This document shows, piece by piece, positions 60,266 to 62,271 of a stretch of 64,000 bases of DNA. The notes below the pieces were generated by a model. That model saw nothing but the letters and a program-made list of their open reading frames with translations. It was not told the origin of the DNA and did not search any database. The stretch covers positions 19,380 through 83,379 of the forward strand of contig JANYLR010000031.1 in assembly GCA_025363715.1 (NCBI GenBank), written 5' to 3'. Each line of letters starts with the position of its first letter. The stretch's first letter is position 1. A program made the translations under genes and the position numbers. Origin of the DNA: Holophagaceae bacterium. GTDB lineage: Bacteria; Acidobacteriota; Holophagae; Holophagales; Holophagaceae.

Positions 60266-60628
60266 ATGTTCACGAAACTCATCGGTGCCGCCACCCTCTT
60301 CGCGGCGGGGTCGCTCATGGCGGGAAGCTCGACGACTCTGGGCGTTACGCCCATCGAGTCCTTCACTGCGGAATCTGCCTTCACGCAGGCTGGGGAATGC
60401 TCCGCCAAAGAGGGCAAAGAGGAGGGCAAGGCCCCCGCCAAGGGGAAGGAAGGCAAGGCCAAGGACGGCTCCTGCGGCAAGGGCTCCTGCGGGAGCAAGG
60501 ACAAGAAGGCCAAGAAGGACGGCTCCTGCGGCAAGGACAAGAAGGAAGGTTCTTGCGGCAAGGACAAGAAGGAAGGTTCATGCGGCAAAGACAAGAAGGA
60601 AGGTTCTTGCGGCAAAGACAAGCAGTAA
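60266..60628 (+). CDS. Putative MNIO-type RiPP precursor (HvfA/bufferin-like): signal peptide plus Cys-rich repeat tail
   Basis: MFTKLIGAATLFAAGSLMAGSS signal; tail with six GSCG motifs plus one ECSAKEG; directly upstream of DUF692. Confidence 0.85.
   Translation: MFTKLIGAATLFAAGSLMAGSSTTLGVTPIESFTAESAFTQAGECSAKEGKEEGKAPAKGKEGKAKDGSCGKGSCGSKDKKAKKDGSCGKDKKEGSCGKDKKEGSCGKDKKEGSCGKDKQ
60518..60625 (+). repeat. Four tandem 27-bp units encoding [D/E]GSCGKDK(K/Q)
   Basis: GACGGCTCCTGCGGCAAGGACAAGAAG, then three near-identical GAAGGTTC[T/A]TGCGGCAA[G/A]GACAAG[A/C]AG units. Confidence 0.97.
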
Positions 60629-60644
60629 GCGGCCGGGAGCGGCC

Positions 60645-61496
60645 ATGACTCAGGGCAGGTTCACCGGGGTGGGGCTGGGGCTTCGCCGTCCACATCTTGA
60701 GCAGGTTGCGGGAATGGAGGCGCACGGCGTGCCCTTCTGGGAAACCTGTCCTGAAAACCTGATCGGGGATGGCGGTCGGAACCATCGGTTGGCCTGCGCC
60801 ATCCTCGACCGCGATCCCGTTCTCACCCACGGGCTGGCCATATCCGTGGGGGGGTTCGATCCCTGGGATGACGAGTACCTTCGTGACCTGGGTGACTTTC
60901 TCCTCCGAACAGAAACCCCATGGCATTCCGAACACCTCTGCTTCACGTCCGTGGATGGCAGCAGCCTGCACGAACTCATGCCCCTGCCCTTCACCCGGGA
61001 GGCCGTGCGGCACACCATCGCCCGGGCCAGGTCGCTGCAGGCGCGACTGCCTGTTCCCCTGCTGCTGGAGAACATCACCTACTACGCCGAGCTGGGGGCC
61101 GCCGAAATGGACGAGGCGGATTTCATCACGGCGGTGCTGGAGGGTGCGGATGCGGGCTGGCTGCTGGATGTCAACAACGTCTACGTCAACTCGCTCAATT
61201 TTGGGTTCGACCCGAAGGAGTGGTTGGCCCGCATGCCCCTGGACCGCGTAGCCCAGCTCCACATCGCAGGACACAAAAAGTTCGGCGAGCTAACCGTGGA
61301 TACCCACGGGACTGATGTCATCGATCCCGTCATCGAGCTCATGCAGTGGACCCTCCGGCGCCTCGGGCGCCCCGTGCCGGTGCTTTTGGAACGGGACAAT
61401 CACATCCCCGATTTCGAGGCGCTGCTGGCGGAGCGGGTGCGGATCCAGCAGGCCTATGACGCGGCCTTGACGCTGTGCGGCCATCGCCATGACTGA
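60645..61496 (+). CDS. DUF692 multinuclear non-heme iron-dependent oxidase (MNIO)
   Basis: GVGLGLRRPHLEQV, PFWETCPENLIGDGG, SVGGFDPWDDEYL, HSEHLCFTS, LLLENITYYA, WLLDVNNVYVNSLNFGFDP, HIAGHKKF, DTHGTDVIDPV, LLERDNHIPDF. Confidence 0.95.
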   Translation: MTQGRFTGVGLGLRRPHLEQVAGMEAHGVPFWETCPENLIGDGGRNHRLACAILDRDPVLTHGLAISVGGFDPWDDEYLRDLGDFLLRTETPWHSEHLCFTSVDGSSLHELMPLPFTREAVRHTIARARSLQARLPVPLLLENITYYAELGAAEMDEADFITAVLEGADAGWLLDVNNVYVNSLNFGFDPKEWLARMPLDRVAQLHIAGHKKFGELTVDTHGTDVIDPVIELMQWTLRRLGRPVPVLLERDNHIPDFEALLAERVRIQQAYDAALTLCGHRHD

Positions 61497-62271
61497 ATCG
61501 CGAACGCTCCGGCTGCAGCGGGCCATGGCGGCCCTGGTCCTGGATGCCGACGAGGACGCCCTTGTGGCCGATCCCGGCCGCCTGGCCCGGCGCCTGGAGC
61601 TCTCCGGAGCCGACCAGGGCTCCTTCCGGGATCAAGGGCCAGGGATGCTGACCTACCGGGAGCTGGCCCGCATGAGCCTCCTCGAGCCACTGGAGGAGAT
61701 GTTCCCGGTGCTGAAGGCGCTCCTGGAGGAAGCTGGCGTCTGGAGCACCTGTGTCCAGGCCTTCCTGGATGCCCGGATGGTGAGGAGCAGCCACTACCGG
61801 GACATCGCCCCGTCCTTCCTGGGCTGGCTGGCGGCCACCGGTTGGGGCCAGGACCGCTGGCCCTTCCTGCTTGAACTGGCCCACGCGGAAATCCTGGAAG
61901 TGGTGGTGGCCCGGTTTCCCGATTCTGATCCACTGGACGGCCTGCATGCAGACCCTGGATCCGACGATCTCGTTGTCATGGATCCGGCCACCCAGGTGGT
62001 GTCGTACGCCCATGCCGTTCATCGCGTGACGGAGGCAAGCCCGGTTCCCGAGGCCCGCCCCACTCAGCTGCTGGCCTTCAGGAACGCCGCCGGTGAAGCC
62101 CGCGTGCTGGAGCTCACCCCGGCCACCGCCGCCCTGCTGGTGCAGGCGCAGACCCGCACGTTGGCCCAGGCTGCCGAGGCCTTGAACCTGTCCGATCTTG
62201 TCCCGGTGATGAATCTTTTGCGTGACCTTCACCGCGATGGAGCCATCGCGGGATTCCAATCCCCCACCTAG
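61489..62271 (+). CDS. DUF2063-like RiPP partner protein (HvfC/BufC-like)
   Basis: Position downstream of DUF692 with overlapping start; RLQRAMAALVL...YRELARMSLLEPLEEMFPVLKALL...HYRDIAPSFLGWL. Confidence 0.75.
   Translation: MTESRTLRLQRAMAALVLDADEDALVADPGRLARRLELSGADQGSFRDQGPGMLTYRELARMSLLEPLEEMFPVLKALLEEAGVWSTCVQAFLDARMVRSSHYRDIAPSFLGWLAATGWGQDRWPFLLELAHAEILEVVVARFPDSDPLDGLHADPGSDDLVVMDPATQVVSYAHAVHRVTEASPVPEARPTQLLAFRNAAGEARVLELTPATAALLVQAQTRTLAQAAEALNLSDLVPVMNLLRDLHRDGAIAGFQSPT

What the first reader, a model, noticed from the sequence alone, without database searches (positions are those of the whole stretch)
60266..62271. MNIO/DUF2063 RiPP locus with a non-standard Cys-repeat precursor
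Seen: a 120-aa ORF with a Sec-type signal peptide and a tail of six GSCG motifs plus one ECSAKEG, followed by a DUF692 enzyme and an overlapping DUF2063-like gene. Established: DUF692 (MNIO) enzymes with a DUF2063-type partner modify cysteines in secreted precursors (HvfABC, bufferins), where EGKCG motifs become copper-binding thiooxazoles. Inference: this locus makes a metal-binding, Cys-modified peptide, but with a GSCGKDKK repeat instead of EGKCG, so product chemistry or metal preference may differ.
Basis: partly seen in the sequence, partly recalled or inferred. Interest (0 to 1): 0.92.

Follow-up and report, generated by a model that had tools for sequence, protein, structure and literature searches.

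The report
Serine-type captophorin operon in Geothrix
A soil and sediment bacterium of the Geothrix group carries a conserved six-gene operon that very probably makes a secreted, cysteine-modified metal-binding peptide of the already known captophorin/oxazolin kind, with a serine where the textbook repeat has a lysine and with its own stress-responsive gene switch.

Summary
60266-60628 encodes a 120-aa precursor (hydrophobic N-terminus, six GSCG, one ECSAKEG). An MNIO gene (60645-61496) and an overlapping DUF2063/RRE partner gene (61489-62271) follow. The unit is larger than reported. YceI (62286-62906), an ECF sigma factor (62948-63565) and a Cys/His anti-sigma factor (63562-63819) belong to it, and a conserved promoter-like box (60123-60148) precedes the precursor. 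This order recurs across Geothrix/Holophagaceae (Acidobacteriota). In a 16-genome set, precursor and partner occur only where the MNIO does.

The "non-standard GSCGKDKK repeat" is mostly a reading-register effect. The unit is [D/E]-G-S-C-G plus a KDKK spacer, so it differs from EGKCG only at the residue before Cys. EGSCG also occurs in Myxococcota and in gammaproteobacterial loci whose enzymes pass NCBI's HvfB cutoff. Published FonBC data show Ala, Thr and Arg tolerated there. A different chemistry or metal is therefore not indicated.

Best reading: a captophorin-type (5-thiooxazole, Cu-binding) RiPP operon, new in motif subtype, host phylum, YceI and sigma/anti-sigma regulation. Modification, metal and promoter activity are untested here.

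The parts
60123..60148 (+). Conserved promoter-like box TGTCACAA-N14-GCAC, presumed ECF sigma promoter of the operon
   Evidence: Footprint in aligned upstream regions of relatives; one match in the own genome; at most one per genus genome, 19 of 21 at this operon, reversed control pattern 4 hits in 41 genomes. Promoter activity inferred.
60266..60628 (+). Precursor peptide, 120 aa: hydrophobic (Sec-like) N-terminus, leader, core with six GSCG ([DE]GSCG / KGSCG) and one ECS
   Evidence: no Pfam or HvfA-model hit; conserved in the genus, 63-85% identity
60645..61496 (+). MNIO (DUF692, HvfB/FonB-like) cysteine-oxidising enzyme, 283 aa
   Evidence: PF05114 6.7e-87; NF003818 HvfB 270.6 bits, under the 360 cut-off; related to PDB 3bww; catalytic-base equivalent D251 and substrate Arg pair R14/R15 kept
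61489..62271 (+). HvfC-type partner protein, DUF2063 + NGO1945_C (RRE) domains, 260 aa
   Evidence: PF09836 and PF22106 over cut-off; NF050145 HvfC 100.5 bits, cut-off 142
62286..62906 (+). YceI family protein with hydrophobic N-terminus
   Evidence: PF04264 5.8e-34; same place in most orthologous loci
62948..63565 (+). ECF sigma factor
   Evidence: Sigma70_r2 and r4_2; orthologues of 65% identity or more only at this operon in 20 genomes
63562..63819 (+). Anti-sigma factor, 85 aa, zf-HC2 type with invariant C7, H33, C37, C40
   Evidence: PF13490 2e-5 and NF052368 8.9e-10; alignment of 9 orthologues

Best explanation
The locus is a self-regulated captophorin-type RiPP operon. A metal or thiol-reactive stress displaces zinc from, or otherwise inactivates, the Cys/His anti-sigma factor (inferred). 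The freed ECF sigma factor transcribes the operon from the TGTCACAA-N14-GCAC box (inferred from conservation and near-single occurrence per genome). The precursor is made in the cytoplasm, its leader is held by the DUF2063/RRE partner, and the iron- and O2-dependent MNIO oxidises the cysteines of the [DE]GSCG repeats, most likely to 5-thiooxazoles with a loss of 4 H per Cys (inferred from homology to FonBC and HvfBC). The product is exported by Sec and binds Cu(I), or other soft metals, in the periplasm or outside the cell, lowering free metal. YceI probably serves the envelope side in place of DoxX. Shown here: gene content, order, co-occurrence, motif conservation, kept catalytic residues and the conserved box. 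Not shown: modification, metal, export, regulation.
For: MNIO and two-domain partner over Pfam cut-offs. Six-gene order conserved in the genus. All-or-none co-occurrence of precursor, MNIO and partner in 16 genomes. Core motif [DE]-G-S-C-G matches EGKCG at four of five positions and occurs beside HvfB-equivalog enzymes (L281, L291). FonB Arg15, Arg16 and Asp249 equivalents kept. All characterised MNIO-PME1 systems install 5-thiooxazole and generally bind Cu (PMC13097082). Conserved box at one place per genome and zinc-type anti-sigma ligands. Caulobacter SigF is a precedent for ECF control of MNIO-DUF2063 clusters (PMC3511200). A G. fermentans-related species dominated a Cu-resistant, Cu-reducing enrichment (PMC10946571; circumstantial).
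Against: No mass, metal or expression data. The MNIO and HvfC miss NCBI's equivalog cut-offs and the precursor misses the HvfA models. Asn replaces the Phe that frames Lys-Cys substrates. G. fermentans is described as a strict anaerobe while characterised MNIOs need O2, although haem-copper oxidase genes are present in all 12 genomes tested. Three genomes keep the box without the dedicated sigma factor. DoxX, usual in such clusters, is absent from the operon.
Confidence: 0.68

Rival explanations
1. Same chemistry (5-thiooxazole peptide), but the physiological target is another soft metal or oxidative/thiol stress rather than copper, as for the chromate- and cadmium-induced SigF regulon of Caulobacter.
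For: Zinc-type Cys/His anti-sigma factors commonly sense redox or thiol-reactive agents (own knowledge; ligands invariant). SigF MNIO clusters respond to Cr and Cd (PMC3511200). YceI and a DCC1-like thiol-disulfide oxidoreductase gene lie in or next to the operon.
Against: All characterised products of the class generally bind Cu (PMC13097082). No sequence feature points to another metal.
Confidence: 0.3
2. The MNIO installs a different modification on the Ser-Cys motif, for example an oxazolone/thioamide or a change involving Ser.
For: The enzyme is not over the HvfB cut-off, has Asn for Phe at a selectivity site, and Ser precedes Cys in nearly all repeats. The authors of PMC13097082 say it is not settled that 5TO is the only product of MNIO-PME1 clusters.
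Against: Canonical HvfB-equivalog enzymes also face EGSCG (L281, L291). FonB F250A and F250D still make 5TO. The catalytic base and Arg pair are kept.
Confidence: 0.12
3. The small protein is an unmodified, metallothionein-like Cys protein and the MNIO acts on something else.
For: No modification has been shown; a Cys- and Lys-rich sequence could bind metal by itself.
Against: Strict adjacency and all-or-none co-occurrence with MNIO and partner. Conserved leader with a variable repeat core, the usual RiPP pattern. In a related genus the leader is kept while the core is replaced (L155).
Confidence: 0.05

Closest known systems
Fontiphorin (FonABC, Fontimonas thermophila; captophorin class, PMC13097082)
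   Same: Precursor-MNIO-DUF2063/RRE gene order; 5-mer Cys repeats with E/D at 1, G at 2, C at 4, G at 5; MNIO best segment 46% identical (L111); Arg pair and catalytic base kept
   Different: Ser instead of Lys at position 3; Asn252 for Phe250; different leader; adds YceI, ECF sigma and anti-sigma; Acidobacteriota host
Oxazolin (HvfABC-X, Haemophilus influenzae; PMC13419390)
   Same: Signal-peptide precursor, HvfB-type MNIO, HvfC-type partner
   Different: HvfA has AEGKCGEGKCG repeats and an HvfX (DoxX) gene; window proteins miss the HvfA/B/C NCBIfam cut-offs
Bufferins Buf1/Buf2 (PMC12452194)
   Same: Sec-exported precursor, MNIO, PME-type 1 partner; sigma/anti-sigma genes occur in Buf1 clusters
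   Different: Buf1 precursors are DUF2282 and Buf2 are Cys-Lys/6-12 Cys; the window precursor has neither
SigF/NrsF regulon of Caulobacter crescentus (PMC3511200)
   Same: MNIO-DUF2063 clusters under an ECF sigma factor that is held by an anti-sigma factor with conserved Cys
   Different: DUF2282 precursor and DoxX; NrsF is a 6-TM DUF1109 membrane protein, here an 85-aa zf-HC2 protein; promoter box differs in kind and was not tested here

Membership tests
Captophorin BGCs (MNIO + PME1 + Cys-rich precursor; 5-thiooxazole products) | MNIO gene (PF05114) | tested here: met
   E=6.7e-87, over cut-off
Captophorin BGCs (MNIO + PME1 + Cys-rich precursor; 5-thiooxazole products) | PME1 partner with DUF2063 and RRE-type C-terminal domain | tested here: met
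   PF09836 and PF22106 both over cut-off
Captophorin BGCs (MNIO + PME1 + Cys-rich precursor; 5-thiooxazole products) | Adjacent Cys-rich precursor, co-conserved | tested here: met
Captophorin BGCs (MNIO + PME1 + Cys-rich precursor; 5-thiooxazole products) | 5-thiooxazole on Cys, Cu binding | not testable with these tools
   Needs MS, NMR and metal assays
Lys-Cys (EGKCG, HvfA/oxazolin) subgroup | EGKCG repeats / NCBIfam NF050137 or NF050188 | tested here: not met
   No hit for the window precursor; FonA and L103 do hit. Motif is [DE]GSCG
Lys-Cys (EGKCG, HvfA/oxazolin) subgroup | HvfB and HvfC equivalog cut-offs | tested here: not met
   NF003818 270.6 of 360 bits; NF050145 100.5 of 142 bits
Bufferin Buf1 / Cys-Lys Buf2 | DUF2282 match, or Cys-Lys motifs | tested here: not met
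   No Pfam hit; Cys is followed by Gly (6 of 7) or Ser; Cys-Lys precursors occur in other Acidobacteriota families
ZAS-type ECF/anti-sigma pair | ECF sigma gene overlapping an anti-sigma gene with conserved Cys/His zinc ligands | tested here: met
   zinc binding itself not tested
ZAS-type ECF/anti-sigma pair | Sigma factor recognises its own operon's promoter | tested here: inconclusive
   Conserved near-unique box, but three genomes keep the box without this sigma factor

The most novel reading that the evidence does not exclude
Holophagaceae and Myxococcota together form a Ser-Cys branch of captophorin biosynthesis, with enzymes lacking the Phe that frames Lys-Cys substrates, whose products differ in metal preference or heterocycle from EGKCG peptides and which, in Geothrix, is driven by its own ECF sigma/zinc-type anti-sigma sensor acting on one promoter: an O2-dependent metal defence in bacteria regarded as anaerobes.
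Probability: 0.2. Interest if true: 0.55.

Novelty: new variant of a known kind. Interest (0 to 1): 0.38.

Why it matters
Captophorins were defined mainly on Pseudomonadota. The main text of the defining paper names three precursor groups (DUF2282, Lys-Cys, Cys-Lys) and no Ser-Cys group; its supplements were not readable here. This locus shows a Ser-Cys type as the usual form in an Acidobacteriota genus, missed by the current HvfA profiles, so databases call it hypothetical. The sigma/anti-sigma pair and the near-unique promoter box make the inducing signal directly testable, which is an open question for the class. An O2-dependent maturase in bacteria described as strict anaerobes is a small, testable puzzle.

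Tried and rejected
(1) Enzyme-substrate co-evolution at the FonB Phe250 site: raw counts looked strong (51 small-residue precursors, none with Phe, in the first set), but on trees of 79 and 170 enzymes there are too few independent pairs, and counter-examples exist both ways (L281 and L291: Phe with Ser-Cys; L114 and L131: Asn with Lys-Cys). Not claimed. (2) GSCGKDKK as a distinct repeat class: rejected, a matter of register. (3) GSCG as specific to Holophagaceae: rejected, found in Myxococcota and Gammaproteobacteria. (4) NCBIfam SclB and SMc04171 hits of the precursor: low complexity, far under cut-off. (5) A literature link between MNIO or DUF2063 and YceI: no paper in the held library. (6) PDB match for the partner by sequence: none meaningful. 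(8) Structure prediction was not run: the Pfam hits settle the domains, and a single-chain model would not show the enzyme-partner-substrate complex.

Full report
WHAT IS THERE. The ORF at 60266-60628 encodes a 120-aa protein with a hydrophobic N-terminus (MFTKLIGAATLFAAGSLMAG), one GECSAKEG and six GSCG. It is followed after 16 bp by an MNIO gene (60645-61496; PF05114 E=6.7e-87), which overlaps by 8 bp a DUF2063 + NGO1945_C gene (61489-62271), then after 14 bp by a YceI gene (62286-62906), after 41 bp by an ECF sigma factor gene (62948-63565) and, overlapping by 4 bp, by an 85-aa zf-HC2 anti-sigma gene (63562-63819). The spacing suggests one transcription unit; transcription was not tested. 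Named relatives place the window in Geothrix/Holophagaceae, Acidobacteriota.

CONSERVATION. Forty relatives of the window's genome were searched with the MNIO; 22 of 41 genomes carry one, and in the orthologous group it is 77-89% identical. Most orthologous loci have the same order precursor-MNIO-HvfC-YceI-sigma-anti-sigma. A subset (G. fermentans, G. campi, G. fuzhouensis, G. oryzisoli) keeps only precursor-MNIO-HvfC, and three (G. terrae, G. paludis, Geothrix sp. SG200) keep YceI but not the sigma pair. In a 16-genome test, precursor and DUF2063 partner were found in all 7 genomes with an MNIO and in none of the 9 without (MNIO status).

THE MOTIF. Aligned on each Cys after the signal region, 26 orthologous precursors show D/E (or K/A) at -3, Gly at -2 (122 of 139), Ser at -1 (97 of 139) and Gly at +1 (137 of 139). 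The unit is thus [DE]GSCG followed by a KDKK-type spacer. The first motif, ECSAKEG, corresponds to a nearly invariant [x]CGAK at the leader/core junction of the relatives.

HOW SPECIAL IS SER-CYS. Upstream ORFs of MNIO genes in other groups show EGSCG as the commonest 5-mer in the sampled Myxococcota (for example EGSCGEGSCGEGSCGEGSCG, L095) and mixed with EGKCG in Gammaproteobacteria (L103, L107, L246). L281 (G478; enzyme 425.9 bits, cut-off 360) has only EGSCG, and L291 (G341; 408 bits) has KKEGSCGDKKGKKEGSCGEKK, a close look-alike of the window's core. So Ser before Cys lies within the range of curated HvfB-type enzymes. Published FonBC assays agree: Ala, Thr and Arg at position 3 are tolerated, Phe and Glu are not, and DGKCG is fully processed (PMC13097082). 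Ser itself was not reported in the text read.

THE ENZYME. The window MNIO keeps the residues that match FonB Arg15, Arg16 and the catalytic base Asp249 (R14, R15, D251), but has Asn252 where FonB has Phe250, a residue modelled to contact Lys3 and Gly5 of the substrate. FonB F250A and F250D remain active. The DVNN and VDTHG segments that hold iron ligands in the related 3BWW structure are kept in the alignment. I tested whether the Phe site tracks the residue before Cys. Raw tables suggest it (of 99 non-Phe enzymes 84 face precursors rich in small residues before Cys; of 42 Phe enzymes only 4), but with phylogenetic control there is no significant association, and counter-examples exist. In the tree the Holophagaceae enzymes group with most of the myxococcal ones (97/88), next to the gammaproteobacterial clade that includes FonB.

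REGULATION. Upstream of the precursor the footprint TGTCACAA-N14-GCAC is conserved in most sigma-bearing loci. It occurs once in the own genome, at 60123-60148, and once in each of 21 of 41 genus genomes; 19 of these 21 sites lie just upstream of the operon as judged by their places (the exceptions are G019 and G023), and the reversed control pattern gave 4 hits in all 41 genomes. In 20 genomes the only sigma factors of 65% identity or more lie at the operon; the other hits are paralogues of about 47-55%. Three genomes (G006, G018, G270) keep the box without the dedicated sigma factor, so a paralogue may read it or it may be a relic. The anti-sigma factor keeps C7, H33, C37 and C40 in all 9 orthologues, a pattern of zinc-binding anti-sigma factors. 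Caulobacter SigF/NrsF is a precedent for ECF control of MNIO-DUF2063 clusters, with a membrane anti-sigma factor and with Cr and Cd as inducers (PMC3511200).

MECHANISM PROPOSED. Stress releases the sigma factor; the operon is induced; the partner presents the precursor; the MNIO converts Cys in [DE]GSCG to 5-thiooxazole; Sec exports the product; the thiol(ate)s bind Cu(I) or other soft metals. Gene content, conservation and motif are shown here; chemistry, metal, export and regulation are inferred. Characterised MNIOs need O2 while G. fermentans is called a strict anaerobe; haem-copper oxidase genes in all 12 genomes tested make use of O2 plausible.

MEMBERSHIP AND NOVELTY. The locus meets the genomic criteria of captophorin BGCs, but misses the HvfA models and the HvfB and HvfC equivalog cut-offs. 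It works like oxazolin and fontiphorin and belongs to the wider captophorin kind, as a Ser-Cys variant in Acidobacteriota with YceI and an ECF/zinc-type anti-sigma control module. No paper in the held library mentions YceI together with MNIO or DUF2063; PMC12452194 reports sigma and NrsF genes in Buf1 but not in Buf2 BGCs.

Noticed in passing
L081 (Geothrix fermentans DSM 14018, G008:C1): 3602-3904, 3970-5001, 5001-5855: A second locus in which a radical SAM/SPASM gene sits between a GSCG-repeat precursor and an MNIO, followed by HvfC and YceI: a possible two-enzyme RiPP pathway.
   Followed up: partly
L155/L211 (G132, another Holophagaceae genus): The precursor keeps a related leader (MITQLLGAAALFAAGS) but its core is RCGRRC repeats, and the MNIO (63% identical) has Leu where the second substrate Arg is.
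   Followed up: partly
L098 (Enhygromyxa salina), L108, L134, L135, L300 (Myxococcota): MNIO loci with AGCPG/AGCPA-repeat lipoprotein-like precursors, Pro after Cys, and EWD instead of ERD in the enzyme; FonBC was reported intolerant to Pro in its repeat.
   Followed up: no
L252 (G547, Myxococcota): MNIO-adjacent precursor with EGDCGAEGDCG repeats, an acidic residue before Cys.
   Followed up: no
L156-L162 (other Acidobacteriota families): MNIOs about 41-43% identical with CKGKNDCKGQGG (Cys-Lys) precursors, so two captophorin subtypes divide the phylum.
   Followed up: partly
window 59728-60111 and 59462-59731: A DCC1-like thiol-disulfide oxidoreductase gene and a GDT1 cation/proton antiporter gene just upstream on the same strand, present at many but not all orthologous loci.
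   Followed up: partly
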